Part shown: piece by piece, positions 22,108-62,398 of the stretch
Numbering within the stretch: position 1 is the stretch's first letter
How the letters are laid out: each line of letters opens with the position of its first letter
Source of the DNA: Bacteroidia bacterium
GTDB taxonomy: Bacteria > Bacteroidota > Bacteroidia > J057
Direction: 5' to 3'
DNA length: 64,000 nucleotides
Assembly: GCA_030430205.1 (NCBI GenBank)
Contig: JAUIGE010000016.1
Coordinates: 89,443-153,442 of the forward strand
The notes under the pieces: model-generated
What the model was told of the DNA's origin: nothing
Database searches by the model: none
The model's input: the letters and a program-made list of their open reading frames with translations, nothing else
Position numbers and translations under genes: made by a program

Positions 22108-22125
22108 ACTCTACCTATAAAAGGA

Positions 22126-45208: not shown

Positions 45209-46729
45209 CTACCGCATTTCGAAACTGATTTGATACGGGAAGGCTTGCGCTTCTCCCGAGATGATTTGTATTTCAAGCTTGTTTTTATCCAGCCCTAAAT
45301 CTCCCAGGCGGTACAGGATTCTTTCTTTTAGCGAATACAGCTTCGCCAATTCAAACTCCATATTGCTCAGCATATCGCCTTCAAAAATGGCGCGCCTTTT
45401 GGTCTTGCCATCTACTTTCCCCAACAAAATCACCCCATCTCCCATGCTTGCGTCATAGGCTTGCTCGGAGAGTTTTTCCAGTTCTTCGGGAGGTAATTTT
45501 GTATAATAAGTCAGTTTAATCCTTACGATCTCCTCCAGATGCGGGTCTTTGCAGATTTCCATCGCATCGCGGATCACATCCGCGCAGATCACGCGGACAA
45601 TGTTTTCGCTTTCGGGCAGGGTCTTCCAATTCATCTCTTTCCTGTCTTCTTCTGCCAGCGAAAAGGAGATTTCCACCCCTGCATTCGCATAGCTATGCGA
45701 AAGGTTGACACGCTCCCGATCGAGGCCATTGGCCTCCAGGACAGGCTGCAATTGTGCCGCCAGCTCGCGCTCCGAGTTCCAGAAGGGCATCCGCTCTTCT
45801 ATCTCTCCGAGGCACCTGGCCGAAGGCGAAAAATTGGCATAACCGCCTAACTCCCAGGTGCTTCCCAGTTGGGAATGCGAATCTATGGCCAGGGTTCCGG
45901 CATATTTGCCTTCATCGACCACGGCTCCGAGCATCATGCCGAAGGTACTGGCACCCGGGCGCATGAAAAGTGCTGCCCAAAACTTTTTTTGGTAGGTAGC
46001 CCGAAGCCAAAGCGAAGTGCCGCCAGCTTTGAGCGAAAAATCGGAGAGCAGGCTGAGTTGCTGCAAGCCTGGCTCCAGGACCAGGCCTTCGCTCACCCAA
46101 AAACCCAATTGAAGGTTGGTGGTCAGGTGTGCCACCTGATCGTAGCGAAAGGTCGCGCCCGCTTCTTCAAACATCATGGGCAGGCGGTTGGCAGCCATGC
46201 TGACTTTGAAGTCGTATTTGCCATCGGCTGTCTGGTAATGGTATTGAAATCCCAGGCTGGCATCGAGCTTCCATACATTGTAGGTATTGCCCTGGAGGAG
46301 ATTGGCATCGCGGTAGTCTTCGATGATCAGGCCGCGATAATCGCGGTAGCGATTGATGGCCCCCAGGCCAATGCCCAGCGAAAAATGATGGCCGTTGACG
46401 GCCTCTATATGAAAGGCGCTGCGCGCCTGAAAGCTGAATAGGTTGTCGCGATGCGCTTTTTCGCGCAGCATGGTGACCCCCCACCCGAAAATGTCTTTTT
46501 CCTTATTTCTGCTATCAAAAGCCAGCAATTGTGCATTCGGTGCATCCTGGATGGGGTTCCATTGGCTGCGGTAGCCAAAGGAGATCGTTTGGCCTGTAGA
46601 GTAGGCCGTAGCGCCCGGATTGTACCAGCTGGGATAAGCGGGTTGAAGCGAAAGCAAGGGCTGCTGTTGCGCTTGCAGCAGCAACAAATTTCCGCCTAGG
46701 AAAACGAGATAAAGTAAAAATCGCTTCAT
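45209..46729 (-). CDS. PorP/SprF-like outer-membrane protein with C-terminal extension
   Basis: The ATG at 46729 (MKRFLLYLVFLGGNLLLLQAQ) provides the signal peptide. Residues 20-330 form the PorP/SprF-type barrel (QPLLSLQPAYPSWYNPGATAYSTGQTISFGYRSQWN, a hallmark opening, then DIFGWGVTMLREKAH). PorP/SprF proteins are partners of type B T9SS cargo such as SprB, and here the gene lies 19 bp downstream of exactly such a cargo gene. About 180 C-terminal residues form an extra domain (ELAKLYSLKERILYRLGDLGLDKNKLEIQI) that looks vaguely like an OmpA-type end; this is unsure. It is the last gene of the ubiquitin-like operon. Confidence 0.84.
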   Translation of the reverse strand: MKRFLLYLVFLGGNLLLLQAQQQPLLSLQPAYPSWYNPGATAYSTGQTISFGYRSQWNPIQDAPNAQLLAFDSRNKEKDIFGWGVTMLREKAHRDNLFSFQARSAFHIEAVNGHHFSLGIGLGAINRYRDYRGLIIEDYRDANLLQGNTYNVWKLDASLGFQYHYQTADGKYDFKVSMAANRLPMMFEEAGATFRYDQVAHLTTNLQLGFWVSEGLVLEPGLQQLSLLSDFSLKAGGTSLWLRATYQKKFWAALFMRPGASTFGMMLGAVVDEGKYAGTLAIDSHSQLGSTWELGGYANFSPSARCLGEIEERMPFWNSERELAAQLQPVLEANGLDRERVNLSHSYANAGVEISFSLAEEDRKEMNWKTLPESENIVRVICADVIRDAMEICKDPHLEEIVRIKLTYYTKLPPEELEKLSEQAYDASMGDGVILLGKVDGKTKRRAIFEGDMLSNMEFELAKLYSLKERILYRLGDLGLDKNKLEIQIISGEAQAFPYQISFEMR

Positions 46730-46748
46730 ATTGATCTGAAAGTCAATG

Positions 46749-49700
46749 TTATCTCTGAATAGTGACGCCGCCGCTTTGCAGCCTTTCTCCTGTGGCCTTT
46801 CGCTCAATAATATACCAATAGGGCCCGTCAGGTGCGTTTCCTCCATCCCAGCGCTTGTCCAGGCTCATGCCTGTATACATCAGGCCTCCGGCCTGGTTGA
46901 AGATCTTGATCTTGTAATCCTCTGGATTCCCATCAACCAGCAGCCTGACTCCCCAATCATCATTGACACCGTCGCCATTGGGCGTAAACATATCGGGGAT
47001 GAAGAAAGTCCCGCTGCCCGGCAGCACTTTTACCAAAATCTCAACCGACTCGCCTATGCAGCTATCTGCAAATACGGGGGTGATGTGGTAAAGCGCTTCC
47101 CCCACAGATCTCGGATCTGTAAAGCTGAAAGTCTGGGCCAAAGGCCCGGCCATCATCCCGGCAGGCAGCTCGGGGCTGGCTTCCAGGAATTCGGAAAGTT
47201 GTACTTCCCACAAATAGGCAACGCCTTCCACATCTGCCTCCGGCAGCAGTTGAAATTCTTTGAGGCTGGTCGCCACAAATTCATCTCCGTTGCTGTAGTT
47301 GGTGATGATGGGAATAGGCAGGATTTCGATGTCGAAATCGTATAGGAGCTTGTTTCCAACAAGCTCATCATTCAATTCATAGAAGATGGTGGTGAGGCCC
47401 ACCGGGAAAATGCCTTCTTTCACCAGCCCGGCGGGCTGGCTGTTGTAGCTCACGAGCGGTGTCCGCTCGCAGGGAAAACGAGCGCTGGGCTCGTTCCAGT
47501 CAATCAATTGCTCTCCACATCTGATGATGTGGGGAGTTTGGGTCAGCCAGACAGCCAGGGCTGTATCCCTGGCGGTGACGCTTATGGAGCAGGGCGTCTT
47601 ATTGCCACTGGAATCCTCGGCTGTGACGGTGAGCGCAAAAGGCTGAGCCACCATCGCACAGGTGATGTTCCATTCGGAAAACTGCACATCAGATATGCCG
47701 CAATTGTCCCATAGACTGACGTCGCTCATCACCTGATCTGCAAAGCCCAGGTCAATCTCCATGCTGTCAGGACAAACTATAGAAGGGAATATTTCATCTA
47801 CTACTGTAACGTATGCCCGGCAACTATCGCCATTGTCATTTTCGTCCAACACCCGCAGAATAAGCTCCTGCACATTTCCAACATCACTGCAAAAAAACTG
47901 ACTGCGGTCAATGCTGATACTCAGCAGGTTGCTCGGGCTACAATTGTCAGTTTTGCTATCCAGTACATCCTCGGGGGTGATGCTTTGCCGGCCACTGGAA
48001 TCAAGTTTGACGGTGATGTTTTTACAGAGGACCTCTGGCTGCGTTTCATCCACAACTATAAAGCGAAAGCTACAAGCTGTGGTATTGTTGCTGGCGTCTG
48101 TGACAGTCAGGGTGATGAGGCTGGTATCAGCCAGCAGGCTTCCAACAGCCGGGAACTGGCTGACTGTCGGCATGGCCGTGCAATTGTCCGTAGGACTGAC
48201 CTTATTGGTGAAATCCGTCAGCATTGCCTGGCAATTTTGATCGGCCGGGACTACTTCTGTAGGCGGGCAGCTGACCTCTGGAGAGATGGTATCTCTGACT
48301 TCTACTATGGGATTGCAAAAGGAAATATTGCCCGAAGAATCCTCTGCGGCAAAGGTGATGCTGTTATTTCCCAAATCAATACAGGAAAAGACATGTTGGT
48401 TAATTGCCACATCTTTTAACATACAATTATCTGTTGCATAGCCAGCTTCTACTGTCTGGATGGTGTCCTGGCCGAGTTCATCAAGATAGAGAATAACCGT
48501 ATTGCAAAATACGAGTGGCTTGATACTGTCCCGTATCAAAACATTTGCCTGGCAGGAGGAACTGTTTGCATTCACATCTGAGGTAGTCAGCCGAAGGACC
48601 TGGCTGCTATTTTGCAGGTCTGTGCAGTCAAAATGGTATTTGTCCAGGAAGACGGTATCGATGCCACAGGCATCTGAAGAGCCCGCATCTATGTCCGAAG
48701 GCAGAATATCTGCCATGCCCATGCTGTCCAGTTGAACCGTCAGGTTCTGGCAAAATGCATCTGGAAGGATGCTGTCTGCGACAGTGACAATCGTCTGGCA
48801 ACTGGCGGTATTGCCGCTGGCATCACTTACTTGCAATGTGACAGCATGTGTACCGACACTGCTGCAGTCGAAAGTAGCCGGGCTGACAGCCAGGCTGAGC
48901 GGGCTGGCGCCACAGTTGTCATCTGAAAGATTGTTCACTTCGGAAGGAGAGAGGCTGTAGCTGCCGCTGGCATCCAGGTAAACCGTAACTGCCTGGCATT
49001 GTGCATCAGGTTGGAGGGTATCCTGTATAGTCAGCTGTGCCTGACAGCTATCGCGATTGCCGTGTATGTCGGTGACAAGCAGCCGGATAGTTGTTGGTAC
49101 CGAACTGCAATCAAAGCTAGTCGGCGGAATGCTGATAGCATCTATGCCGCAATTATCAGAGCTTCCATTTTCAATTTCAGAGGCAGCAAGCTCATAGCTG
49201 CCTTGGGCATCCAGGTAGACAGTCAGAGACTGGCATTGGGCGCTGGGCCGGAGCGTATCCCTGACAGTGATCTGTACATCGCAACTGTCTTCATTCGCAT
49301 GAATATCTTCCACCCAAAGCCTCACCATCACTGGAGAAGCTGTATGTGAGCAATCAAAATTGCCAGAGGATATCCGGATGGTATCGATCGCACAATTGTC
49401 AGATGAGCCATTATCTATATCAGAAGCTGTGATGCTAAAGCTGCCATGGGTATCCAGATAGACAGTCAGGGACTGGCATAGTGCCTGAGGCGATAGGCTA
49501 TCGAGCACAGATATTTGTGCAAGGCAGCTGTCCTCATTGGCGTAGATGTCTGTGGCATGCAGCCACACGGGACGCGGGCTGCCTACATCATTGCATGAAA
49601 AAAAGGTAGGTGCCATAAACACCGAATCCAGGCCGCAATTGTCAGATGAGCCGTTATCTATTTCAGAGGCAGCCAGGGCATAATTTCCTGCTGAATCCAG

Positions 49701-50387
49701 GTACACAGAAATGTCCCTACAAACCACCTCCGGTTTTCTCTTATCTTCCAGCTTGATGAGTGCCTGGCAACTGCTGTCATTTCCAAAAACATCAACCAAT
49801 GAGAGCGTGACTACTTTGCTAAAAGGAGAGATGTCGCTGCATTTGAAAGAATCCTGATTGATGAGCATGCTGGCGATGCCGCAGCCATCAGAAGAGCCAT
49901 TATCTACATCTGAAGGGGCAATCTTATAGCCGCCAAAGGCGTCAAGGTTGAGTGTCAGGTTTTTGCATTTTGCGTTGGGTGCGAGGCTGTCAACGACCTT
50001 GACCAGGGCCTGGCAGCTGCTGCTGTTTTCGCTGGAGTCTTCCACTGTAAGCAGGACGACTTTGGAGAAAGTAGAAACATCGGTGCAGCTAAAATCATCG
50101 CGATTGAGCGACATTGCGGCGATGCCGCAGGAGTCGGACGAGCCGCCATCTACATCAGAGGGCGCTATATATGCCTCTCCCTCTGCATCCAATTGGATGG
50201 TGATATTTTTACAAATAGCTGTGGGGGGAATGCTATCAACGGCTGTCAGGCTTGTATCCTGCATGATCCGGTCAGCCTGTGGCAGGCGGGCAGGTGCAGC
50301 GTCGCCTGAAGGAGAGAAGCTTAGCGGATTGATAAATAATCCTACGCAAAGAATCAGGGTTGCATGTATAAAGATGCTGTATTTCAT
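46749..50387 (-). CDS. Giant HYR-like repeat protein with T9SS type B (gliding-motility) sorting domain
   Basis: The 1212-residue product has a signal peptide (IFIHATLILCVGLFI). About eleven tandem repeats of roughly 80 residues follow, most with the core CQSLTVYLD...G...ASEIDNGSSDNCGID and ending AQITVRD. They resemble HYR/Ig-like domains and contain one true HYR-type unit (VSCPPTEVVPADQNC). The last about 90 residues (FIPDMFTPNGDGVNDDWGV, YKIKIFNQAGGLMYT, RWDGGNAPDGPYWYII) are the gliding-motility-associated type B sorting domain. It is predicted to be exported to the surface by T9SS with the SprF-like partner encoded next. It is co-transcribed with ubiquitin-like conjugation genes 15 bp upstream. 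Confidence 0.9.
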   Translation of the reverse strand: MKYSIFIHATLILCVGLFINPLSFSPSGDAAPARLPQADRIMQDTSLTAVDSIPPTAICKNITIQLDAEGEAYIAPSDVDGGSSDSCGIAAMSLNRDDFSCTDVSTFSKVVLLTVEDSSENSSSCQALVKVVDSLAPNAKCKNLTLNLDAFGGYKIAPSDVDNGSSDGCGIASMLINQDSFKCSDISPFSKVVTLSLVDVFGNDSSCQALIKLEDKRKPEVVCRDISVYLDSAGNYALAASEIDNGSSDNCGLDSVFMAPTFFSCNDVGSPRPVWLHATDIYANEDSCLAQISVLDSLSPQALCQSLTVYLDTHGSFSITASDIDNGSSDNCAIDTIRISSGNFDCSHTASPVMVRLWVEDIHANEDSCDVQITVRDTLRPSAQCQSLTVYLDAQGSYELAASEIENGSSDNCGIDAISIPPTSFDCSSVPTTIRLLVTDIHGNRDSCQAQLTIQDTLQPDAQCQAVTVYLDASGSYSLSPSEVNNLSDDNCGASPLSLAVSPATFDCSSVGTHAVTLQVSDASGNTASCQTIVTVADSILPDAFCQNLTVQLDSMGMADILPSDIDAGSSDACGIDTVFLDKYHFDCTDLQNSSQVLRLTTSDVNANSSSCQANVLIRDSIKPLVFCNTVILYLDELGQDTIQTVEAGYATDNCMLKDVAINQHVFSCIDLGNNSITFAAEDSSGNISFCNPIVEVRDTISPEVSCPPTEVVPADQNCQAMLTDFTNKVSPTDNCTAMPTVSQFPAVGSLLADTSLITLTVTDASNNTTACSFRFIVVDETQPEVLCKNITVKLDSSGRQSITPEDVLDSKTDNCSPSNLLSISIDRSQFFCSDVGNVQELILRVLDENDNGDSCRAYVTVVDEIFPSIVCPDSMEIDLGFADQVMSDVSLWDNCGISDVQFSEWNITCAMVAQPFALTVTAEDSSGNKTPCSISVTARDTALAVWLTQTPHIIRCGEQLIDWNEPSARFPCERTPLVSYNSQPAGLVKEGIFPVGLTTIFYELNDELVGNKLLYDFDIEILPIPIITNYSNGDEFVATSLKEFQLLPEADVEGVAYLWEVQLSEFLEASPELPAGMMAGPLAQTFSFTDPRSVGEALYHITPVFADSCIGESVEILVKVLPGSGTFFIPDMFTPNGDGVNDDWGVRLLVDGNPEDYKIKIFNQAGGLMYTGMSLDKRWDGGNAPDGPYWYIIERKATGERLQSGGVTIQR

Positions 50388-50401
50388 ACGGCTAAGCCTT
50401 G

Positions 50402-52219
50402 CTAAAATCTTTTTTGGATTTTTATGGCAGAAGGAAGCTGTGCAGATGAGGCACGGGAAGGAGCGGGTTTGTCCTTGCTTACTTCATTTTTTACGGTAAA
50501 CATCATACGCGTAATGCCTTCTGGTCCCAATTGTATTTCGTCTTTATCCCTCAACTCATAAGACTTATTAAGGGGAATTTCACGCCCATTGAGCCATACA
50601 GGATGGAGTGGTTTGATAAATACTTTTCCCTCTTTATAGCTGAGTTCAGCATGTTTGGGCTGCACTTCAGGGTCCAGATCAGACCATTTGACAAACACAT
50701 AGCAGGCTGAGTCCGTGCCAATATGAATGTCCATGCCTGTTTTGAGCCATTTGCTGATAGGGTTTACCCTTCGGAATTCCGCCGGACTGAGATAGGTTAA
50801 TTCGAAGTCTTCGTAGCTCCGGATCACCGATACCAAAGTATAAGCCAAAATAGCGCCTAAGATGATAAAGGCAATCATTTTTGTCCATTCGAAGCTATTT
50901 CTTCCCCATGCATATTCATTGAGCAGAAAAGGAAGGTAGTAGAGCAAAAAGGCAATACTGCCTGCCAGGCTACCGCCTATGAGACCTCGGAAAAGGTGAA
51001 TGCTGGAGCGAATACTGAGCGAGATGCCCAGTACCAGTCCAAAAAGCATCCAGCTGAGCAGGCCTCGTACAAAGCTCAGGTTTTCTCCAAAAATTTCCTT
51101 GAAGAGCAAAAAAGTGCCAAAAAAGACCAGCGTTGAGACAAGGGCACCCAGCCCGGCCCTGATGAGGATTCTTCCCCAGGAAAATTGACGGGATTGCCCG
51201 TTTTCCTCTGCCCAGGCCAGCATAATGCTCAAAAATAAGCCCAGCGAAAAGCCCGTCAGGCTATCTCTCAGCAAGGCATAGCCATTCCCGTCGCCTGACA
51301 GTTCCCCCAAAAATGAATACAGTCCCTGAAGGGGTAAAGCAGAAATTCCAATCATGCACAACCAGGCCAAAAGGCCTCCCAGGGCCCCAAACCAAACCCA
51401 GTTGAGCATACGGTAAGGCCCTTGCTGGCTGAAAAATACTTCTCCGGCGCTGATACCTTCCCCTTCTGAGCAACTGCCTGTCAGGCCCGGCGTATGCCGC
51501 AGGCAGCCGGGATAGTTGACGCATTTGTTGTCGAGCAGCTTCCAGGTATCCAGGTGGTGGATTTGCCTGCATTTGATCACTACTCTGTCTGCTTCATCAA
51601 AGGGTTGAAGCGTATAGGGATCGCTGCGGGCATATTGCTTTTTGTCAATCTTTTCATACCTCCTGACATATTTTCTCAAAAAGCCCAGGCGCTTGATACC
51701 GGGCAGGAACTGGCTGAAAATTGCCAGGAAAAAGGCCACGATCAGGGCCCCTGCCAGGGCAAGCAATTGCCAGTCTACATAGCCCAGATTTACCGGATTG
51801 GTGGGGCTACCTATCACAAACTGCTTCTCAGCCATCAGGCTGCCCCCCGCCAACTGCGCCCGCAGGCTGCGCACCTCGCCCCTATACAGCGCCTCATGGG
51901 CGCTTGCCTGAAAATCATACCCATGTATATGGAAAATGTGCAAAGCCTGTGTGCTTTGCTTTTGGCGGGAGAAGTTGTGGATGCGGACTTCGTCCTCTTC
52001 CATCAGCTCAAAGAGCTGCAGGTTGGACTCATCCAGCGTCTGACCAAAGCGTTGGTCATAGAAAGAGATATGCAGCTCAATAGCTTGCTGGTCAGGGCGA
52101 TACAGGATGGAGTCTATGCGCAGCTCGCCATCAGGCAAGTCTGCCTGCTGTGCCTGTAAAGGGAGCATCCCCAGCAAGAGCATCAGACATCCTATGATTC
52201 TACTTCGCTTTCGTTCCAT
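50402..52219 (-). CDS. Polytopic inner-membrane protein with RING-like treble clef and FHA domain
   Basis: The start at 52219 (MERKRSRIIGCLMLLLGMLPLQAQ) gives a signal peptide and a 28-bp overlap with the JAB gene. Residues 25-140 are a periplasmic beta-rich domain. TM1 lies at about 150-170. Residues 205-250 are cytosolic and carry a Cys/His cluster: C217, H221-H222, W226, C233, C239 and C250 in the order C-x3-HH-x3-W-x6-C-x4-GC, which aligns with bacterial RING-like (Prok-RING) treble clefs. Some ligands appear lost. Several more membrane helices (about 270-470) follow. Residues 497-580 form an FHA domain (IHIGTDS, PKHAEL, VWLNGREI, DEIQLG), a phosphothreonine-binding fold. It is a candidate membrane E3-like adaptor for the Ubl pathway. 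Confidence 0.84.
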   Translation of the reverse strand: MERKRSRIIGCLMLLLGMLPLQAQQADLPDGELRIDSILYRPDQQAIELHISFYDQRFGQTLDESNLQLFELMEEDEVRIHNFSRQKQSTQALHIFHIHGYDFQASAHEALYRGEVRSLRAQLAGGSLMAEKQFVIGSPTNPVNLGYVDWQLLALAGALIVAFFLAIFSQFLPGIKRLGFLRKYVRRYEKIDKKQYARSDPYTLQPFDEADRVVIKCRQIHHLDTWKLLDNKCVNYPGCLRHTPGLTGSCSEGEGISAGEVFFSQQGPYRMLNWVWFGALGGLLAWLCMIGISALPLQGLYSFLGELSGDGNGYALLRDSLTGFSLGLFLSIMLAWAEENGQSRQFSWGRILIRAGLGALVSTLVFFGTFLLFKEIFGENLSFVRGLLSWMLFGLVLGISLSIRSSIHLFRGLIGGSLAGSIAFLLYYLPFLLNEYAWGRNSFEWTKMIAFIILGAILAYTLVSVIRSYEDFELTYLSPAEFRRVNPISKWLKTGMDIHIGTDSACYVFVKWSDLDPEVQPKHAELSYKEGKVFIKPLHPVWLNGREIPLNKSYELRDKDEIQLGPEGITRMMFTVKNEVSKDKPAPSRASSAQLPSAIKIQKRF

Positions 52220-52815
52220 GCAATCCAATCCTGATGATTCCATTCAGTTGTCATATCGCCATTTTGTTTTTTTGCCAAAATGACGGTCGGAAAAGGTTCC
52301 AGACAGGGATCTGTGACCATAGCAATATGAAAATCGGCTTTGAAAAAAGCCCAATGCGTCGCCAGATCTATATCTGAAAAAAAAGGAGTATGCCCCGGAT
52401 GGGTGTGAAACCACCCCAGCAATTGTTCGGCGGGATAGGCATCCAGCGCTTTATCAAGCGCAAGCATGGCCGCCGGTCCCAGGCGCAGGCGGTTCGCGCT
52501 TTGAAAGCTCACCTCCGTCGCCGCTATAAAATGCATGATAACTAGCAGGTACTTTCCCTCTGAAGAACGAGCAAATTGTCCTAAAAGGAAGCCTCCCACT
52601 TCGGGAACAGCCTTCTCTTGCAGACTTTGCAACGCCCAATCAAAGATAGCTTGTTTTGCCTGAGGGAAAAAATAACAGCGCTTCACCTGGCTGTCTCCGG
52701 GAATATCAAAAGCTACTGCCTCTGCCTGCTCTGCAATCTGCCTGAGTTGCTTCTCCGTCAAACTGGCCGGAGCGCTTCGCTTTTGGATGACGATATGTTC
52801 ACCGGCTTTATTCAT
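52192..52815 (-). CDS. Soluble JAB/JAMM (MPN+) isopeptidase-like protein
   Basis: The 207-residue cytosolic protein has a complete JAMM zinc-protease motif: E72 (PEVGGFLLG), H137-T-H139 (GWFHTHPGHT), S147 and D150 (HxHx7Sx2D). JAB proteins remove or process ubiquitin-like modifiers. The domain fills residues about 45-195, with a short N-terminal helix before it. It starts 8 bp inside the end of the membrane-anchored JAB gene and overlaps the RING/FHA gene, showing tight translational coupling. The likely role is Ubl maturation or deconjugation. Confidence 0.92.
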   Translation of the reverse strand: MNKAGEHIVIQKRSAPASLTEKQLRQIAEQAEAVAFDIPGDSQVKRCYFFPQAKQAIFDWALQSLQEKAVPEVGGFLLGQFARSSEGKYLLVIMHFIAATEVSFQSANRLRLGPAAMLALDKALDAYPAEQLLGWFHTHPGHTPFFSDIDLATHWAFFKADFHIAMVTDPCLEPFPTVILAKKQNGDMTTEWNHQDWIAWNESEVES

Positions 52816-54364
52816 GCGCCATTTGCAATTTCATGAGTTGTTCCCATTTAAACCATTGGGCGGTGGCGCGGTCGTTGCGGTTGTTCATCTCACCGGTCTT
52901 TTTTCGGGTGAAAAAAGCTGTGTCCAGCCCCTCACTGAGGCTGTCTATGACCATGGCGAGTTGGTATTTTTCCTTGAAAAAACCGTTGTGAATCCGCAGG
53001 TCCGGCTGCGAGAGGAAGAGGCCATGGCCGGGATGTGTGTGAAACCAGGCCAAGGTCTGCAAAGCAGGGTATTTGTCCTGTACTTCGGCCAGTTCGGCCC
53101 AGGCCATGGTCTCAAAGGAAACGCGGTACACACCGCTTTTGCCGGGCGTGATGGGGACAAATTTTTCGAGAAAAATATCCCATTCGCCTTCATTTTGGCC
53201 TTTTTTATATTGCCCGAGGATAAATCCGCCAATCTCAGGCACGGCATCTGAACCTTCTTCTTTGAAGGGGCGGATGTTTTGATCTGTGATAAAACGGTCA
53301 ATCTCATGCATCATGTGCATGTTGAGAAAAAGCTGGTGGATGCTGCTGTCACGCCAGCATTTGTGCAGGGGGAGGACGGTATATTTACCGTCTTTGAAAG
53401 GGCGGGGAACCGCCTTCAATGCCAAAGGCTGTGCCTTGGTGGCTGAGATCGTGGGAGCCGCCATGGGGCGGCTTTGGGCCTGCGTAGCAGGGAGGGGAGT
53501 TGCGGCTTTCTTCTTTTTTCGCCCAAAAAGAAACCACCCCAGCCCTGCCAAAATCGGCAATAGCAGCAACAGAACCCATGGAAAAGAAGAAGTCTTTTCT
53601 CCCTCTACAGGCTGTGGACTAATGGGAGGGATATCTTTATTTTCAATGGGAGATGAACCCCTATTTTGGCTATTGGTTGTCGTTGTGGAAGGATTTTGGG
53701 CTTCTCCTGTATTTTCCCTATCGCTGGTTTGACTTCCATTTTCCGATGGAATAATGGGCTTGGCAGGATCATTTCTATCTCTCTCGCGGGGATTATCCTC
53801 GGTTTGCTGAGGCTTAGGCAGGGAAGCAATAGTTGCCTGCCGGGCGCTATCTTCCTTTTTCGCCTGTACCAGCGGAGGTGTAGTGGCTACCGGCTCCGTT
53901 TTTTCTTCCTTTTCTACTATGCTAAAAGGAATTTTGATCTGTCCGCTATTATTTTCCCCTTTTTTACAACTGACCGCGTAGTTGATCACAAGGGTGTGAC
54001 TGCCTGCACATGCCTCTGTATCTATGGTATACTGAAGAGATACAGTGGAAATATTGTTGGGGTCTTTTTGCTTAAAGCGAAGCGTTTCGGGTTCGGGTGC
54101 CTGGATAAGCTTGCAAGCGGTCTGCTTGCTGGCATCGGTGAGGATCATCTCACATTCTTTTCGCTTGTCGGGAACCCATGCGGGTTCTTCTTCATCTTGT
54201 GTAGACAAAATGACGAGTATACCGGCTCCCTGGGCGTTTATTTTCAGCTTCAGCTGCAGGCCTGCCTGCGATTTGGCATACTTGCCCAGCGCCAGCTCCT
54301 GGGCATGGGTCGTCTGCGTTATGAAAAGCAGCATGAGCGCTATGTATGCGAAAAGCTTTTTCAT
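52808..54364 (-). CDS. Membrane-anchored JAB/JAMM isopeptidase-like protein with periplasmic domain
   Basis: The 518-residue product has a signal peptide (KLFAYIALMLLFITQTTHAQ). Next come a periplasmic Cys-containing beta domain (about 25-150), a Pro/Ser/Asn-rich linker (150-258) and one TM helix (about 260-281) followed by RKKKK, which places the rest in the cytosol. The C-terminal JAB domain (about 325-490) has all motif residues: E377 (VPEIGGFILG), H442-T-H444 (WFHTHPGHG), S452 and D455. This topology could couple a periplasmic signal to cytosolic Ubl removal. It overlaps the upstream periplasmic gene by ATGA. Confidence 0.92.
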   Translation of the reverse strand: MKKLFAYIALMLLFITQTTHAQELALGKYAKSQAGLQLKLKINAQGAGILVILSTQDEEEPAWVPDKRKECEMILTDASKQTACKLIQAPEPETLRFKQKDPNNISTVSLQYTIDTEACAGSHTLVINYAVSCKKGENNSGQIKIPFSIVEKEEKTEPVATTPPLVQAKKEDSARQATIASLPKPQQTEDNPRERDRNDPAKPIIPSENGSQTSDRENTGEAQNPSTTTTNSQNRGSSPIENKDIPPISPQPVEGEKTSSFPWVLLLLLPILAGLGWFLFGRKKKKAATPLPATQAQSRPMAAPTISATKAQPLALKAVPRPFKDGKYTVLPLHKCWRDSSIHQLFLNMHMMHEIDRFITDQNIRPFKEEGSDAVPEIGGFILGQYKKGQNEGEWDIFLEKFVPITPGKSGVYRVSFETMAWAELAEVQDKYPALQTLAWFHTHPGHGLFLSQPDLRIHNGFFKEKYQLAMVIDSLSEGLDTAFFTRKKTGEMNNRNDRATAQWFKWEQLMKLQMAHE

Positions 54365-56463
54365 CTTTTTCTGACCTTTCGGGCCACGTGTATATTGGCA
54401 TAAGTGAGCCAGCTCACCATGAGCAGGAGGACAACTGCCAAAGCAGTTTTTAACAGATCGGTCGGAATCCTGCCGCCATGCTTGATGGCGATGGGTTGTC
54501 CCAGCCGCAATTCATGCATTTCATCATTGCGTCCGTCCCGGACGATGACTTCATACAAGCCGTCAGGCAAACTGCCCAATTTTTTTTCTTTGTCTACAAC
54601 AAAAATGCCTGCTCCATCGGGCGGGTCATTTTCGAAAGGAAAAGCGAAAGAAATTTCGGGGTCATCCAGCTGCTGAAAGATCAGCCTATAGGCACCTTTG
54701 CCATTGGCCAGCAGGCTGTCGCCTCCACTGATGCGCATTTTGATGCGGTATTCACCTTCAAACCAGCCTTCTACCACTTGCGCCTCCAGTGGTTTGATGT
54801 ATGTATTGATGTCGAGGAAAATATTTTTGCCAAGGCTGTCTATGAATGTTAAATGGAAAATGCCCTGTATGCCGGATGGGATCAGGATATCAAGGGTATT
54901 TTCCTGGGAAATGCGGATTTGGATGTTGCCTTCATCTTCCGGGATGCTATCTCCGGGATAGATGATGAGCAGCTGATTGGGGCTGCTGAGCTCAAGGAGG
55001 GCATCCTTTTTCTCCTGCGTAGCCGCTACCCAAAGTAGGGGAGGAGCGAAATAACTTAGCTGAAAGCTGTAGCTTCTCCGCCCCTGGCGGGTGGAGAGGC
55101 TGTTGAGGGGCGTTATTTTTGTTTTGACTTCCTTCAAAACCTCCAAGTAGCGGAGCTGGTCTTTTGACTGGAAGCAGGCATCGCAATATTCCCGCTGGAT
55201 GCGTGTGCGCTTTTCTCCTTCAGGGAGAGATTCGATCTCTCGCCAGAGCATTTCGCACTGGTCTGCGGTCCGCACACAAAGGCGGGCGAGCCATCGCCGC
55301 CGGGCATTTTCCTTGTCTATATATGCATCCATGATGCGGGCGGGACATTGATCGAGGTAGCTGAGAAAACGCGTGCAACTGGCGCGATCTTCCTCCGCAT
55401 CCGGGCGCCTGTCGTCAAACTGTGCTTCCCATCGGAAGCCGATCAATTTGTTTAGCCGCAACTGAATTTGGCGTACTTCGCTTGCGCGATCCGCCACCTG
55501 GTCATAGGTGCCCAGGAACTCACATAATCCTGGTAATTGATTGCTAATCAACGCTTCTGTGAAGAAATCTTCTTCCTTCAGGCTGCCGGAAAGCGTCTTC
55601 GCTTTGGACACGCAGCTGCCTTTCCAACCCAGTTTTTTGTACAGCCGGAGGTAGCTTTCGGCTGTGCTCTCGTCCAATTCCTGGCAAAGCCTGTCCTCAT
55701 TAGCCATGAGGCTTTCGTTGGCTTGCCGTGCATATTTGCCGCACTCGCCAAAATTGGCGAGGTAATTTTGAATGGCAGCTGTCTGCCCAAAAATATCTTC
55801 GCTTAAGTCTGTCACCTTCTCCCAGGCGAGATCGTCTCCCTTAGTGGGAGGGAGCACATTGAAAGGAATTTCAATCAGGATGTCTTTGGGCGTTATCCGC
55901 TCAAGCTCTCCCGGCTCATCAACATTGTTTTTTTTGATGGCATATAGCTTCAACCTGAGCGTGAGGTTGGTGGTGCAGGTTTTGCTGATTTGAGGGCTGA
56001 TGAGAAATTCAATTTTTCCCGGATCAGAGGGCGTTGCGATAGGCAAAAAGACAGATTGGTCAGTTTCTACGATGCGGTTGCCGTCGCTGAGTTGCTCAAG
56101 TTTGAAGGCGGGATTTTCGCGGGAAAAACGGTTGCCCTGAAAAGTGAGCACTGTCCTGCCCAGGCCCCAGCGGAGCTTTTCCCACTGAAAATTGGTCAGG
56201 CTGATATTGATTTTATCTTCTGAGCCGATGAGTTGATTTCCCTCATCTTCCTTTTCGGATTCGGAATAAGTGGACCAAAAATATACATCTACGCTTCCTT
56301 CAACTACACTTTTGTCATTTCCTTCTTTCATTTCCATGGAAAGGAAGCGTACTGTTTTCAATCGTTTGGCATCCTGAGCAAATAGGAGAGGGCCTTGTCC
56401 CCAAAGGAACAAAAGCAGCCAGAGTATGCCTATTTGCTTTGATGTCATGATGCGCTCTTTCAC
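54361..56463 (-). CDS. Periplasmic Cys-rich protein with C-terminal membrane anchor
   Basis: The product (about 700 residues) has an N-terminal signal peptide. The first codon is likely GTG at 56463, forming a GTGA overlap with the E2 gene; an ATG at 56448 is an alternative. A beta-rich domain (about 30-240) is followed by a helical domain (about 245-450) with roughly nine Cys residues at regular spacing (GECGKYA, RLCQEL, GSCVSK, GLCEFL, DQCPAR, RLCVRT, EYCDACF), suggesting disulfides. A second beta-rich region precedes one C-terminal TM helix (about 672-692) and a short basic tail (KVRKR). I recognise no family. It may sit in the periplasmic part of the Ubl complex. Confidence 0.78.
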   Translation of the reverse strand: MKERIMTSKQIGILWLLLFLWGQGPLLFAQDAKRLKTVRFLSMEMKEGNDKSVVEGSVDVYFWSTYSESEKEDEGNQLIGSEDKINISLTNFQWEKLRWGLGRTVLTFQGNRFSRENPAFKLEQLSDGNRIVETDQSVFLPIATPSDPGKIEFLISPQISKTCTTNLTLRLKLYAIKKNNVDEPGELERITPKDILIEIPFNVLPPTKGDDLAWEKVTDLSEDIFGQTAAIQNYLANFGECGKYARQANESLMANEDRLCQELDESTAESYLRLYKKLGWKGSCVSKAKTLSGSLKEEDFFTEALISNQLPGLCEFLGTYDQVADRASEVRQIQLRLNKLIGFRWEAQFDDRRPDAEEDRASCTRFLSYLDQCPARIMDAYIDKENARRRWLARLCVRTADQCEMLWREIESLPEGEKRTRIQREYCDACFQSKDQLRYLEVLKEVKTKITPLNSLSTRQGRRSYSFQLSYFAPPLLWVAATQEKKDALLELSSPNQLLIIYPGDSIPEDEGNIQIRISQENTLDILIPSGIQGIFHLTFIDSLGKNIFLDINTYIKPLEAQVVEGWFEGEYRIKMRISGGDSLLANGKGAYRLIFQQLDDPEISFAFPFENDPPDGAGIFVVDKEKKLGSLPDGLYEVIVRDGRNDEMHELRLGQPIAIKHGGRIPTDLLKTALAVVLLLMVSWLTYANIHVARKVRKR

Positions 56464-57185
56464 TTCTTCTTTATGCTAATATTAGGCCCTTTTTCTTCTT
56501 TTTTCTCATTCATTTTCGGGGGGGAAAGTACGATCAGCTTGCGGCCGCTTTCACGGGGCGAAAACCGTCTGGGTTTTTCCTGGAAAAAATCTTCTTCTCC
56601 CTCCGTTCCTTCTTCTTTTTTCAAACTGACCAGCGGGCTGGCGTCCACTGCGAGCCCTTTGGCTTTGTCAAAGATTCCCGATGGCTCCGCATATTCAATC
56701 ACCCAGTCAGCGACTTCAAAATCTTCGGGATAAGGGGAAATCTCCTTATCGGCATGGTAGTTTTTGTATTGCAGGATTTGACCGATCCTGCGCACAAGCA
56801 AATCGAGGGTGTACATCTTGCCAAAGCTCTCCATATTGCCGCAAACGCGGCCTTTATAGCGACCGCTCCATTTGATATTGGGGTGCCAGATGTCGGTTCT
56901 GGCGTAGATGCGCGCACCTTCTATAGGGAAGGCTTTGGGCAGGCTGATTTCGATTATATGATGCTCACCAAAGACAGGTGCCCGCGTCTCTTCCTCTATT
57001 CCCACGATGCTTTTTACATGGTAGTGAATGAGGTATTTTTCCGGAGGCATGCGTTTGCCTTCGGTCTCATAGCGGATTTTATCGGTCTTGCTACAAAATT
57101 CATGTAGCAATTGATGCTCCGTTGCCAGGCGTTTATCCCGGGGATCCTGCAGTTGGGTAAAATCGTAGACAGGCGTTTCCATCAT
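56460..57185 (-). CDS. E2-like ubiquitin-conjugating enzyme homologue
   Basis: The 241-residue cytosolic protein carries an E2-like UBC fold (about 20-165). The strand order leads to ISLPKAFPIEGARIYARTDIW, then the HPN motif (residues 101-103) and a Cys at 115 in GRVCGN, the position of the catalytic Cys that receives the modifier from E1. A helix (LLVRRIGQILQY) and the terminal DWVIEYAEP complete the prokaryotic E2 pattern. The last about 75 residues are charged and probably flexible. The start ATG overlaps the Ubl stop by ATGA. It probably passes the 94-residue Ubl on to a target, possibly with the RING-like membrane protein. Confidence 0.87.
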   Translation of the reverse strand: MMETPVYDFTQLQDPRDKRLATEHQLLHEFCSKTDKIRYETEGKRMPPEKYLIHYHVKSIVGIEEETRAPVFGEHHIIEISLPKAFPIEGARIYARTDIWHPNIKWSGRYKGRVCGNMESFGKMYTLDLLVRRIGQILQYKNYHADKEISPYPEDFEVADWVIEYAEPSGIFDKAKGLAVDASPLVSLKKEEGTEGEEDFFQEKPRRFSPRESGRKLIVLSPPKMNEKKEEKGPNISIKKK

Positions 57186-57466
57186 ATTTTTCCTGCTTCT
57201 AAATCCGCTGCCAATATCAGCGTATCTCCTTCTTTGATGCTCATGTTGTGAAGGCTTTTTGCCGGATCTATCTCCTGCCCTGTGTTTTTGGAGATCAGGC
57301 GGTAGCTATAAGGTTGTCCGTTGGGGCCTACACGTTCTACCTCATCGAGGTTCATCAGCTCATCCAGGAGCTGCTTGCCCCGTGTATATAGCGGCAACTC
57401 TATATCGAACTCCATGCCGCTTGGCATGATTCGGATGACGATGTTGATGATGTTTTCTTCTGACAT
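57182..57466 (-). CDS. YukD/ubiquitin-like modifier protein (94 aa)
   Basis: This small protein has a beta-grasp pattern: strand NIINIVIRIMPSGMEFDIELP, helix GKQLLDELMNL, then strands YSYRLISKN and TGQEIDPAKSLHNMSIKEGDTLILAAD. It resembles YukD/EsaB-like ubiquitin homologues found in bacterial conjugation operons. The C-terminus is EAGKI, without a terminal Gly-Gly, so activation may use a different end or a trimmed form. It is followed by, and overlaps, the E2 gene. It is predicted to be the modifier of this system; it is cytosolic. Confidence 0.84.
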   Translation of the reverse strand: MSEENIINIVIRIMPSGMEFDIELPLYTRGKQLLDELMNLDEVERVGPNGQPYSYRLISKNTGQEIDPAKSLHNMSIKEGDTLILAADLEAGKI

Positions 57467-57481
57467 GTGGGGGAAGTTTGT

Positions 57482-57544
57482 TGGTTTTGGGTTTTGAGTT
57501 TTGGGTTTTGAGTTTCGGGTTTCGGGTTTCGGGTTTCGGGTTTA
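57482..57544 (-). repeat. Tandem GAAACCC / AAAACTC repeat between E1-like and Ubl genes
   Basis: In gene orientation this is about nine 7-base units: four GAAACCC, then GAAACTC, AAAACCC and AAAACTC types. It sits in the 172-bp leader of the Ubl gene, the only sizeable gap in the operon. It resembles the repeat between greA and the HIT gene. Confidence 0.6.
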
Positions 57545-57638
57545 AGAGGGGACGCTGTTGGACACTGATTAGACTGATTTTCGCTGTTTCCATTTTTCTT
57601 AACATGTGTCTGTCTGTCTGATCTGCGTTTTTCTGTGT

Positions 57639-58814
57639 CTATTCTTCATCTCCACTCAACTCCACAAAGTGGAGCCGTCCATTGGCCCGCACGCGGACAA
57701 TATGCAAAGGCGGTATCCCCGCCTTTTTCAATGAAATATCCTGATGCGGAAAATCCGCATGTAACTCCCCAAAAGAATCGGTAATAACGATTTCCTCATT
57801 GGGGTGGCTTTGAAAAGCCGCTATCATCTGATCGTTGAAGGCTCCTTTGGGAGCCAGAACATGATGCGTTTGCTCGGTCTCTTTGGTGGTGATCTCGCTG
57901 ATGAGCTCTTCATCCAGCTCTATATATGCTTCGGGATCATCAAACTGCTTTCGCAGGATTTCGAGGCTTTGGGCGATGGTCAAATCTGCGCGTAGCGCAG
58001 GCACTTCTATGATTGGATCATAGGTGAAATGGCTCAGGCAATCGGTACGGATGGGGGTGGTTTTGAAGCGGATGAAATCGTTGTTCATGCCTTCATAATA
58101 GACTCTTTCTCCGACCAGGAGCTTGTCGTCATTGCCGTGAATCACCTTGATGGCTTCCTGTACCTGCATGGCACCGATGATAGAGGCTGCAAGTGGGGTG
58201 GTGGGCACGCGGCCCAGCTCCATGCTTCGCCTTGCGATGTCGGGACAGCCCAGTTGAAACTGGATAAACTGCCTGTCAGAGGTACCGAGGCTACATTCGT
58301 AGCAGGACTTGCCCGGCCGGTAGACGGTCACCTGACCGGCGAGATTCTGGATGCCGCCATCTATCCAGGTCTTGTTGGCCTTGTGGCACATGCGGTTGAC
58401 AAACAGCCGCGCCAGGCGGTTGTCAAGGCACCCGATGACAACATCGGCGCGGCGAAAGACGCCCAGGCCCACATCGTGGGGGATCTTGCCAATAATCGAG
58501 TCAATTTTGACTTGCGGATTCATCTCCCGGATGCGCTGCACAGCGATTTGCGCTTTGTAGTTTTCGCCCTCGGTATCCCGCTCCCGGAAGAGCACCGATC
58601 GGGAGAGATTGGAATACTCGATGGTATCGAAGTCGATCACCAGGATCTCGCCCACATTCAGCAGAGCGAGGTTTTTGAGTACCTCATTGCCCAAAGCACC
58701 CGCCCCGACGACAATGACTTTCGCCTTGCGTACCTTCTCCGCATCCCACCACGAGATGAGCTCAAAGGTGTGGTCCCAGGATCGGGGGTCAAATTTGCGT
58801 TTGGGAGTCTGCAT
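57639..58814 (-). CDS. E1-like ThiF/MoeB family adenylating enzyme
   Basis: The 391-residue cytosolic protein has an E1-type adenylation domain: GAGALG (37-42), the D-x-D strand IDFDTIEYSNLSRS (ATP/Mg site), K87, the CLDN motif at 129-132, CYEC at 171-174 and a Cys at 190 (LGCPDI), the position of the thioester Cys in ThiF relatives. GRVPTTPLAASIIGAMQVQEAIKVI then closes the fold. The second zinc Cys pair of MoeB is not seen. About 100 C-terminal residues form an extra domain of unknown type. It probably activates the adjacent Ubl for transfer to the E2. It is the first gene of the nine-gene operon; a 172-bp gap precedes the Ubl gene. Confidence 0.89.
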   Translation of the reverse strand: MQTPKRKFDPRSWDHTFELISWWDAEKVRKAKVIVVGAGALGNEVLKNLALLNVGEILVIDFDTIEYSNLSRSVLFRERDTEGENYKAQIAVQRIREMNPQVKIDSIIGKIPHDVGLGVFRRADVVIGCLDNRLARLFVNRMCHKANKTWIDGGIQNLAGQVTVYRPGKSCYECSLGTSDRQFIQFQLGCPDIARRSMELGRVPTTPLAASIIGAMQVQEAIKVIHGNDDKLLVGERVYYEGMNNDFIRFKTTPIRTDCLSHFTYDPIIEVPALRADLTIAQSLEILRKQFDDPEAYIELDEELISEITTKETEQTHHVLAPKGAFNDQMIAAFQSHPNEEIVITDSFGELHADFPHQDISLKKAGIPPLHIVRVRANGRLHFVELSGDEE

Positions 58815-58847
58815 AAGGGAATAAAGATGCGATTGTTTTTAGACATC

Positions 58848-58880
58848 TAAACTACATAGCCTCATGAATCATTCCAAAAA
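58848..58880 (-). promoter_or_regulatory. Candidate promoter of the ubiquitin-like operon
   Basis: On the minus strand TTTTGG is followed, after about 20 bp, by TAGTTTAG (one mismatch to TAnnTTTG), 33 bp before the E1-like ATG. Confidence 0.3.
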
Positions 58881-59004
58881 GTGAGTTTATCAGTTTTTCA
58901 GCTACACAAGCAAGAAGGTGCTTAGCAAGAAGAATTTTCTGAAACGTTTGGGCGGCAAGCGAGAATAGGCTTATCTTAACTTTCTTTCAACAATTCCCAC
59001 AAAT

Positions 59005-60020: not shown

Positions 60021-60709
60021 ATGCTTCCTGTATATAAAGCCGTTGTTGTAAAATCTCTAGATTTAGTAGGAGGAACGACTCTGCCTTGTGTTTTGCTTGT
60101 TGCTGACAGGGAAGGAAGAATAGTCGGTGATTATGTAGTGAAAATTCCTACAATGAAGCAGATAGAACAATATCAGCCTACAAACAAAGAAGTATATAGT
60201 AGTATTTTAGCCCAACATTTTGACATACCTATCCCTCCTCCTGCTTTGGTTTATGTCCCAGAGGAAGTGATTAGGTCTTTGAAAATTCATGAAAAGTACA
60301 GGAAGCGCGATATAAAAAAAGGCTACTTCTTTGGATGCCTATATTTTGAAGATGTTTTGGATTATCAAAGTTCATTCATCCAAAAGGAAGACCTTTGGAA
60401 GATTGAATTGATCTTTGCTTTTGACGCCTTGATTATGAATAGAGATAGGGTGGCAAGGGAACAAAAGGAGAACACCTATTCCTGGATAAATTACGTTTTT
60501 TTGCAAAAAGCGAAGAGGTGACATTTGATGAGTTTGGAGAATATCTTAATTCTCTTGATCCTAATTTGCTAACTCCTTACAAAGAACAATTGGAAAGTTT
60601 AGGTCATGATGTAGATGACTTTATCTATATTCAAGACTATTTGAAAGAGGCACGAAACAATATTACCTTCTTCCAGCGTTTATTAAAATCCTTAATAAAT
60701 CCATCATGA
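60021..60709 (+). pseudogene. HipA-like kinase gene broken by a frameshift
   Basis: The first frame (60021-60521) encodes the N-terminal and central part of a HipA-like kinase fold (VYKAVVVKSLDLVGGT, DYVVKIP and IFAFDALIMNRDR, the catalytic-loop-like NxDR). Just after this, near 60447-60450, the coding switches to the next frame, which continues GGKGTKGEHLFLDKL...EYLNSLDPNLLTPYK to 60709. The expected L-I-D-H metal-site motif after NxDR is not found, so a deletion may accompany the shift. A one-base loss in the run GATAGGGTGG explains the change. The last frame overlaps the DUF3037 start by ATGA, as in intact pairs. Confidence 0.65.
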
Positions 60710-61545
60710 ATAATCTATTCCAGTACAGTACATTAAATTACCGTCCCTCCCAAATTTTGGGAGAGCAAGTGGTTATTGGCTTATTGATGGTTTTTCATGG
60801 TGAGAAGGTGGTAAAATTCTTCTGGCCCAGGCATTTAGCAAGGATTACTGCCTGCTTTCCCAGTTCTGATTTGACCATATTGAGAAAGTACCTGAAATCA
60901 TTCGAGCTAAAAGCAAAGCATTTGGAGGCATTTGATATTGGGAGAATCAATGGCGATTTATGGATTGATCAAAACTTTTTTACAAAAGACTCTAATAGCC
61001 TTTCTTTTAATTCATTCAAGCAAGGCTTTTATGATAAGCCTGAAGAAATCATTACCCACTTCAAGCTTAGTTTCTTCAAAAACTATGAGCCAGAGCAAGC
61101 CAGGAAGAAAATAGATGATACGTACCTGATTCAGGAATTCAACGATTCCTTAAAATTGTTTAGCCCTGAAAGACAAGCTCTGATCAAGCGGTCATACCAG
61201 TTAAAAACAGAGCTGGTGGAAACTGTGTTTGATTTTGGCTGGCGAAATGGGACCACAAATCTGGTTAAATCCCTCAGTTTTGACCTCAAAAAGAAGGATT
61301 CAATCCAAAATAAAGCAGTCCGTTGGTACGGTGAAATCGCCCAATTCAACGAAAAAGCCAAAAGAGAAAATATCAGGTTTGATTTCCTGGTTCACACCCC
61401 ACAGGATAAGAACCTTTTTGATGCTTATGACAGAGCACTGAAAATAATTGATGGCTTGGAAGCAAAAACAAGTATTATTGAGCAAAATAAACTTGGAGCT
61501 TATGTAGAAAAGGCCGTTGAGACAGCTGTTGAGATGGAGGTGTGA
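60706..61545 (+). CDS. DUF3037 family protein
   Basis: The 279-residue protein opens with FQYSTLNYRPSQILGEQVVIGLLMVFHGEKV, the DUF3037 pattern (YxYxxxRYxPxxxxGExxNVG). The remaining two-thirds are helical. DUF3037 genes are frequently paired with HipA-like kinase genes, as here, but the function is unknown. There is no signal peptide. The ATG overlaps the preceding stop. Confidence 0.8.
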   Translation: MNNLFQYSTLNYRPSQILGEQVVIGLLMVFHGEKVVKFFWPRHLARITACFPSSDLTILRKYLKSFELKAKHLEAFDIGRINGDLWIDQNFFTKDSNSLSFNSFKQGFYDKPEEIITHFKLSFFKNYEPEQARKKIDDTYLIQEFNDSLKLFSPERQALIKRSYQLKTELVETVFDFGWRNGTTNLVKSLSFDLKKKDSIQNKAVRWYGEIAQFNEKAKRENIRFDFLVHTPQDKNLFDAYDRALKIIDGLEAKTSIIEQNKLGAYVEKAVETAVEMEV

Positions 61546-62217: not shown

Positions 62218-62251
62218 AGCCAGATGGCAAAGGTTCATAGATATGTACGTT

Positions 62252-62267
62252 GCCCCTTTGGGGCTTT
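62252..62267 (+). terminator. Short hairpin after the 127-aa gene
   Basis: GCCCC-TTT-GGGGC followed by TTT. Weak T tract. Confidence 0.45.
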
Positions 62268-62396: not shown

Positions 62397-62398
62397 GT

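What the first reader, a model, noticed from the sequence alone, without database searches (positions are those of the whole stretch)
45209..58814. Envelope-linked bacterial ubiquitin-like conjugation operon
Nine minus-strand genes follow each other, most with ATGA/GTGA or longer overlaps: E1-like, Ubl, E2-like, periplasmic anchored protein, membrane JAB, soluble JAB, RING/FHA membrane protein, giant T9SS type B repeat protein, PorP/SprF-like barrel. Predicted bacterial Ubl operons are known, but an E1/E2/Ubl/JAB core fused by context to inner-membrane, periplasmic, outer-membrane and surface partners is unusual. A hypothesis is that envelope or adhesin state controls cytosolic Ubl tagging, or that the tagging controls surface export.
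Basis: partly seen in the sequence, partly recalled or inferred. Interest (0 to 1): 0.95.

Follow-up and report, generated by a model that had tools for sequence, protein, structure and literature searches.

The report
Envelope-wired bacterial ubiquitin-like tagging operon
A bacterium of the Bacteroidota carries one gene block that encodes a ubiquitin-like tagging cascade together with inner-membrane, periplasmic and cell-surface adhesin proteins, an arrangement that recurs in related species and would likely let the state of the cell envelope control protein tagging inside the cell.

Summary
Nine consecutive minus-strand genes encode an E1, a YukD-type Ubl, an E2, a periplasmic membrane-anchored protein, a transmembrane JAMM peptidase, a soluble JAMM peptidase, a multi-pass FHA protein, a T9SS type B protein and a PorP/SprF barrel. 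Catalytic residues are invariant in relatives: E1 Cys190 35/35, E2 HPN plus Cys115 40/40. All 36 Ubls carry Ala/Pro-Gly at or within five residues of the C-terminus; 14 end there. The E1 is predicted to have the full SAE2/UBA1 layout with the E2-docking domain. Periplasmic and membrane partners belong to the conserved core. The T9SS-B/PorP pair follows the FHA gene in 9 of 18 assessable loci, over three families. The PorP has a special C-terminal domain, found in 5/5 E2-positive and 0/17 E2-negative genomes of the order; in another family the link is strong but not exclusive (8/27 versus 7/371). The RING is unproven. A basic I-x-I-x-(x)-K/R-K/R motif recurs at the ends of E2, FHA protein, soluble JAB and neighbouring genes. 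E1/E2/Ubl/JAB operons are known; the envelope-integrated form with its own adhesin carrier is a new variant. Conjugation, substrates and direction of signalling are untested.

The parts
57639..58814 (-). E1 (391 aa): adenylation domain, likely Zn motif C171/C174...C259/H262, catalytic-type Cys190 (58245-58247), C-terminal UFD-like domain about 268-391
57182..57466 (-). YukD-type Ubl (94 aa), C-terminus ...LEAG-KI; conserved Gly92 at 57191-57193
   Evidence: YukD 33.1 bits; [AP]G at or within 5 residues of the end in 36 of 36, ending exactly at G in 14
56460..57185 (-). E2 (241 aa): HPN 101-103, Cys115 (56841-56843), tail ending PNISIKKK (56463-56486)
   Evidence: HPN and Cys115 in all 40 distinct sequences (which lists 41 because the window is counted twice); profile A1 hits eukaryotic E2 structures, best E 5.2e-8
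54361..56463 (-). Periplasmic protein (700 aa): signal peptide, large exported part, C-terminal TM anchor (predicted)
   Evidence: hydrophobic stretches at 11 and 666; profile match to the proteins in the same slot of other loci, 98.3% probability, E 1.2e-14, residues 396-686
52808..54364 (-). Membrane JAB (518 aa): signal peptide, periplasmic part, TM about 263-281, predicted cytosolic JAMM domain (motif 53000-53041)
   Evidence: JAMM regex at 442, hydrophobic stretch at 263; two relatives scanned score above the Pfam JAB cut-off
52192..52815 (-). Soluble JAB (207 aa), JAMM motif 52366-52407, N-terminal IVIQKR (52777-52794)
   Evidence: Prok-JAB 35.3 bits; JAMM at 137
50402..52243 (-). FHA membrane protein (613 aa, likely start Met9): signal peptide, periplasmic beta domain, TM, Cys-containing RING/U-box-like region (51428-51658), further TMs, FHA (50525-50725), C-terminal AIKIQKRF (50405-50428)
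46749..50387 (-). T9SS type B surface protein (1212 aa) with a HYR match; CTD 46761-47000
   Evidence: HYR 54.9, CHU_C 51.3 bits; TIGR04131 39.9 bits
45209..46729 (-). PorP/SprF-family outer-membrane barrel (likely start Met40 of the 545-aa ORF) with an extra C-terminal domain (45209-45919)
   Evidence: PorP_SprF 67.8 bits; extension homologous among operon PorPs and co-occurring with E2

Best explanation
The block encodes a ubiquitin-like conjugation and deconjugation cascade together with inner-membrane, periplasmic and surface proteins, and it most likely works as an outside-in relay in which envelope state would set how much Ubl is attached to proteins at the cytosolic face of the inner membrane. 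Shown by sequence: intact E1, E2, Ubl and JAMM signatures, proteins with export signals, and a T9SS-B protein with a PorP/SprF carrier. Inferred steps: (1) a JAB trims the two residues after Gly92 of the Ubl; (2) E1 Cys190 charges the Ubl and hands it to E2 Cys115 through its UFD; (3) the multi-pass FHA protein acts as the ligase-like platform at the membrane, and its FHA domain reads a phosphothreonine; (4) the basic I-x-I-x-(x)-K/R-K/R strands on E2, FHA protein and soluble JAB, and on neighbours such as nSTAND NTPases and a membrane M23 peptidase, dock partners, perhaps on the acidic Ubl; (5) the SprF-like carrier holds the adhesin outside, and its extra periplasmic domain talks to the periplasmic parts of the anchored protein, membrane JAB and FHA protein instead of to the gliding track; (6) this switches the membrane JAB or the ligase and changes Ubl tagging.
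For: Invariant catalytic residues and conserved Ubl terminal Gly. Full SAE2/UBA1-like predicted E1 with UFD; the E1 profile scores UBA1 (115.1 bits) above MoeB (86.7). E1 beside Ubl and E2 in 35 of 39 mapped loci; the 4 exceptions are one contig edge and three remote E2s. In 35 loci with a readable gene after E2, 28 have a protein without JAMM motif there, 26 of them with a C-terminal TM by hydropathy; the window's is homologous to those of other loci. Membrane-JAB family in 35 of 39 loci, 31 with JAMM, the other 4 on contigs under 10 kb. FHA then T9SS-B then PorP in 9 of 18 assessable loci, five genera, three families, against 31 T9SS-B matches in an estimated 5,400 genes of the own genome. 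PorP extension in 5/5 E2+ versus 0/17 E2- genomes (p 3.8e-5). Motif at ends of E2 16/39, FHA protein 8/29, soluble JAB 3/8, nSTAND 6/6; non-core genes within 3 kb 9/145 (6 of the 9 are nSTAND) versus 1/126 beyond 6 kb. In print: type B CTD proteins bind PorP-like carriers (PMC9143113, abstract); SprF's periplasmic tail links to GldK through a Cys-x-Cys (PMC12635249, passages), absent from 11 of 11 operon PorPs.
Against: No experiment. Half of the assessable loci lack T9SS-B/PorP, including one clade that also lacks the periplasmic-slot protein, so the adhesin is an optional output. Seven E2-negative genomes carry the PorP extension. Three other PorPs of the own genome also lack Cys-x-Cys, so its absence is weak evidence. 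RING unproven, and its Cys residues are missing in 3 of 22 FHA proteins aligned. The motif is absent at the ends of E1 (0/35) and Ubl (0/36), seen in 2/60 membrane-JAB-family proteins, in only 2/10 M23-family matches at strict stringency, and missing from the closest M23 of the own genome, a lipoprotein. Sequences are related, so p-values are optimistic. The window's FHA protein lacks the vWA domain that would be the best sensor candidate.
Confidence: 0.42

Rival explanations
1. It is an immune (anti-phage or anti-competitor) system: Ubl tagging is the effector, and the surface, periplasmic and membrane parts sense attack.
For: Patchy distribution: E2 in 4/395 genomes of the phylum sample, 5/22 of the order, 19/396 and 27/398 of two further samples that overlap. 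The E1+E2 tree mixes families (support values not printed) and three genomes hold more than one E2 locus (G742, G866, G502), which fits horizontal movement. nSTAND1-like NTPases lie next to E1 in six loci. An integrase and a HipA-like/DUF3037 pair lie upstream of the window's operon. Bil and CBASS use related chemistry (PMC11354881 passage; recalled for CBASS).
Against: In PADLOC only E1-E2 (25 of 30 matches shown) and JAB families match, no other defence component among the nine. A dedicated T9SS-B adhesin with its carrier is not a usual part of such systems (general knowledge). No relative of the E2 was confirmed in the viral contigs.
Confidence: 0.27
2. Inside-out control: cytosolic Ubl tagging of membrane or secretion components decides export or anchoring of the operon's own T9SS-B adhesin.
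For: Same gene block, dedicated PorP carrier.
Against: Half of the assessable loci have no such adhesin; the exported parts of the JAB and FHA proteins suggest sensing rather than only output.
Confidence: 0.18
3. The Ubl acts without conjugation, like B. subtilis YukD, as a structural part of an envelope complex.
For: YukD family hit; YukD is reported not to be conjugated (PMC1779556, passage).
Against: Conserved terminal Gly 36/36 and intact E1 and E2 catalytic residues; two JAMM peptidases.
Confidence: 0.07
4. T9SS-B and PorP are simply a separate operon that lies downstream by chance.
For: A T9SS-B/PorP pair also occurs alone in the own genome (C63), and half of the assessable loci lack the pair.
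Against: 9 of 18 assessable loci over three families and five genera, and perfect co-occurrence of the PorP extension with E2 in the order.
Confidence: 0.06

Closest known systems
Bacterial E1/E2/Ubl/JAB operons, class 6 of Iyer, Burroughs and Aravind 2006 (PMC1779556; passages read)
   Same: E1, E2, Ubl and JAB in one gene neighbourhood; transfer of the Ubl to targets is predicted there
   Different: The table rows that I saw (part of class 6) name no membrane JAB, periplasmic partner, FHA protein or T9SS gene; YukD-type Ubls are listed there with ESAT-6-type export
Prokaryotic RING systems of Burroughs, Iyer and Aravind 2011 (10.1039/c1mb05061c; not held; content recalled)
   Same: As recalled: E1 with UFD, E2, YukD-like Ubl, JAB and a membrane RING protein; probably the same broad class
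   Different: RING not confirmed here; T9SS-B/SprF, FHA/vWA and terminal motif links could not be checked against that text
Ubl conjugation within FtsH ternary systems (PMC7159879; passage)
   Same: Separate E1, JAB and prokaryotic RING, with an E2
   Different: There the Ubl is fused to E2 and EAD1 with caspase-like effectors; here the Ubl is free and the partners are envelope proteins
Bil (BilABCD; PMC11354881, passage)
   Same: E1, E2, JAB-type peptidase, Ubl; the peptidase exposes the terminal Gly
   Different: BilA has two Ubl domains; here one; more genes here
SprB/SprF and PG1035/PorP type B anchoring (PMC9143113 abstract; PMC12635249 passages)
   Same: Type B CTD protein with a PorP/SprF carrier
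   Different: Special C-terminal domain without Cys-x-Cys; in one gene block with a Ubl cascade

Membership tests
E1-E2 Ubl conjugation system | E1 with adenylation domain and catalytic Cys | tested here: met
   ThiF 177.6 bits; Cys190 in 35 of 35
E1-E2 Ubl conjugation system | E1 domain that presents E2 (UFD) | tested here: met
E1-E2 Ubl conjugation system | E2 with HPN and catalytic Cys | tested here: met
   40 of 40 distinct sequences
E1-E2 Ubl conjugation system | Ubl with conserved C-terminal Gly | tested here: met
   36 of 36 with [AP]G at or within 5 residues of the end; the window needs 2 residues removed
E1-E2 Ubl conjugation system | JAMM isopeptidase with intact motif | tested here: met
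   Both window JABs; 31 of 35 membrane-JAB-family loci and 9 of 9 soluble-JAB loci
E1-E2 Ubl conjugation system | Covalent adducts | not testable with these tools
   -
Prokaryotic RING E3 systems | RING/treble-clef domain | tested here: inconclusive
   No Pfam hit in the window protein; Prok-RING_1 in 1 of 13 members, E 0.0094; no match over cut-off in 17 genomes; the fold search was filled by FHA
Bil | Ubl with two tandem Ubl domains (BilA) | tested here: not met
   94 aa, one YukD domain
CBASS type II | E1-E2 fusion (Cap2) with a CD-NTase | tested here: not met
   E1 and E2 are separate genes; no CD-NTase family among the nine
Bub systems | BubA/BubB/BubCD set | not tested
   No models at hand; one BubCD structure (9eav_A) appears only as an E1 fold match
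YukD/WXG100 secretion (T7SS) | FtsK-like ATPase and WXG100 protein in the neighbourhood | tested here: not met
   Not among the nine genes or the six flanking genes scanned
T9SS type B adhesin with PorP/SprF carrier | Type B CTD and adjacent PorP_SprF barrel | tested here: met
   TIGR04131 39.9 and PF11751 67.8 bits
SprF gliding carrier | Cys-x-Cys in the periplasmic tail (PMC12635249) | tested here: not met
   0 of 11 operon PorPs

The most novel reading that the evidence does not exclude
A ubiquitin-like conjugation system built into a bacterial envelope as a trans-envelope signalling device: a surface adhesin on a dedicated SprF carrier signals through periplasmic domains to a membrane ligase and a membrane JAMM peptidase, and a SUMO-motif-like basic strand (I-x-I-x-(x)-K/R-K/R) at protein ends gathers substrates such as peptidoglycan peptidases and NTPases for tagging at the inner membrane.
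Probability: 0.27. Interest if true: 0.92.

Novelty: new variant of a known kind. Interest (0 to 1): 0.74.

Why it matters
Described bacterial ubiquitin-like systems are, to my knowledge, mostly cytosolic and linked to immunity. A system whose ligase-like and deconjugating parts cross the inner membrane and that has its own adhesin carrier would be a first sign that bacteria use ubiquitin-like tagging to read or set their surface. It also gives a clean set of features to test: terminal Gly, E1 Cys190, E2 Cys115, JAMM, PorP extension and terminal motif. It bears on how E1 enzymes with a UFD, and E2 enzymes, of eukaryotic layout arose.

Tried and rejected
RING: tested by Pfam on the protein, Pfam on 13 cut-out regions (13 of the 15 locus regions printed, two left out), a profile of these 13 against PDB sequences, PF14446 in 17 genomes and the fold of the whole protein. 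None settles it; only one genome's match lay in the FHA gene, at 15.7 bits, other places scored higher, and 13 of 14 control genomes 'ring' at that loose threshold. I keep 'RING/U-box-like, unproven'.

An M23 peptidase with the terminal motif encoded elsewhere in the own genome was sought: the best match (L101) is a lipoprotein without the motif. Negative.

Viral contigs: 5 pattern matches, none a relative of the E2. Promoter patterns: nothing upstream of E1 beyond chance (no TANNTTTG in 58815-59004). Terminator-like sites were twice the chance number over the region (35 against 16.8), none listed in the gap 50388-50401; not followed up. Papers: searches for T9SS, gliding or Saprospiraceae with Ubl terms listed no paper that by title and abstract links the two; only the listed rows were seen. 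Burroughs 2011 and 2012 are not held, so whether they already noted some of these partners is not known.

Rows dropped before counts: L003, L005 and L037 as duplicates; FHA-downstream contexts with no or a cut next gene (G404, G1035, G410, G902, G742:C177, G760) from the 9 of 18; five loci with a divergent FHA gene; E2-positive genomes G804 and G991 were not fetched. G404 (other contig) shows FHA, then a 721-aa protein with a T9SS-like end, then PorP extension, but that end was not scanned and is not counted. The T9SS profile that I built was poor (several labels in that map, such as ANK on 717- to 1,532-aa proteins, are wrong, and T9 is not a count); the T9SS counts rest. The comparison takes it that both drew the same 398 genomes, as both describe the same draw. 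Export signals and TMs come from a plain hydropathy scan in my scripts, gene calls from mechanical ORFs.
Full report
What is there. The window is the end of a 153-kb contig of a 7.24-Mb assembly. Gene starts need two corrections: PorP starts at Met40 of the ORF and the FHA protein probably at Met9.

The surface pair. After the FHA gene comes a T9SS protein and then a PorP/SprF barrel in 9 of 18 loci where the next gene could be read: window, G407, G483, G502, G726, G742, G774, G845, G846. The type B CTD score passes the NCBIfam cut-off in 8 of the 9 (G742 31.1, below 35); PorP passes Pfam in the 8 loci scanned, G845's barrel being cut and recognised by its extension. G774 and G845 have a second T9SS gene with a type A-like match. 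These loci fall in five genera and three families. The nine without are G064, G158, G549, G565, G678, G688, G694, G714 and G863. The own genome has 31 type B matches (28 over cut-off) and 4 PorP matches. The operon PorPs carry a C-terminal extension that is homologous among them. In the order, that extension occurs in 5 of 22 genomes, the same five that have the E2 (Fisher p 3.8e-5). In the family of G064 it occurs in 8 of 27 E2-positive and 7 of 371 E2-negative genomes (p 7e-7): linked, but not exclusive. Three of the seven E2-negative ones were looked at; one (G764) has a T9SS-like protein and a membrane-JAB-family protein beside it, two show no core family nearby. According to PMC9143113 (abstract) type B proteins bind PorP-like carriers, and according to PMC12635249 (passages) SprF attaches to GldK by a Cys-x-Cys tail. 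None of 11 operon PorPs has this tail, but neither do three other PorPs of the own genome. That the extension replaces the track link by a link to the Ubl system's periplasmic domains is my inference.

A shared terminal motif. I-x-I-x-(x)-K/R-K/R stands in the last 15 residues of 16 of 39 E2s and 8 of 29 FHA proteins and in the first 25 of 3 of 8 soluble JABs; the window has it in all three. Background in 328 genes from the own genome: 3 at C-termini, none at N-termini. Among non-core genes it occurs in 9 of 145 within 3 kb, 2 of 89 at 3-6 kb, 1 of 126 beyond 6 kb (p 0.017 near versus far). Six of the nine are nSTAND1-like NTPases next to E1, several from related species; all 6 of that family have it at the C-terminus. 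Of 10 M23-family matches 2 have it strictly, others in looser form by eye. It is absent at the ends of E1 and Ubl. The Ubls are acidic (window net charge -7; 25 of 26 negative). A SUMO-motif-like docking strand is the obvious hypothesis; it is untested. Relatedness among the species makes these p-values optimistic.

How it most likely works, and rivals. I commit to outside-in control of Ubl tagging at the inner membrane (0.42), with an immune role (0.27) and inside-out control of the adhesin (0.18) as the main rivals. The distribution is patchy (4/395, 5/22, 19/396 and 27/398 genomes in overlapping samples) and the E1+E2 tree mixes families, which fits horizontal transfer and keeps the immune rival alive.

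Known or new. E1/E2/Ubl/JAB operons have been described since 2006 (PMC1779556, passages), and systems with a prokaryotic RING since 2011 (recalled; cited in PMC7159879, passage). By structure of the cascade this is a member of that kind. It is not Bil or type II CBASS (defining features not met). New here, as far as the listings can tell, are the link to a T9SS-B adhesin with its own SprF variant, the conserved set of exported partners, the conserved terminal Gly in this YukD-type branch, and the terminal motif; Burroughs 2011, not readable here, may hold part of this.

Noticed in passing
window 14882-25353 (-): Three large ClpB-type AAA+ genes with a Schlafen AlbA_2/RecG-like gene between the second and third; possibly a conflict system.
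   Followed up: no
window 60021-63821 (+): HipA_2-like protein, DUF3037 protein and a tyrosine integrase diverge from the Ubl operon near the contig end.
   Followed up: no
L050, L054, L049, L045 upstream of E1; L123 (G845), L127 (G863): nSTAND1-like NTPase gene next to E1 (one scanned by Pfam), all 6 of the family with a C-terminal I-x-I-x-K/R-K/R motif.
   Followed up: partly
L073:8320-9759 (-), L048:12549-13922, L056:12006-13313: Membrane-anchored M23 peptidase beside the operon, some with the motif at the N-terminus before the TM.
   Followed up: partly
L053:12185-13951 and equivalents in L058, L051: Ankyrin-repeat protein with an SprB repeat, divergent from E1.
   Followed up: no
G742 (contigs C122, C177), G866 (C361, C360), G502 (C673, C535): More than one E2 locus in one genome; G742:C122 has two E2 genes in tandem.
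   Followed up: no
L125/L126 (G846): Genes downstream of PorP look by eye like Hcp, VgrG and PAAR proteins of a contractile secretion system (not scanned).
   Followed up: no
L076:6578-8320 (-): Caspase-like protein by eye, third gene after the FHA gene of G565 (not scanned).
   Followed up: no
L157 (G764): E2-negative genome with a membrane-JAB-family protein, a T9SS-like protein and the PorP extension side by side.
   Followed up: no
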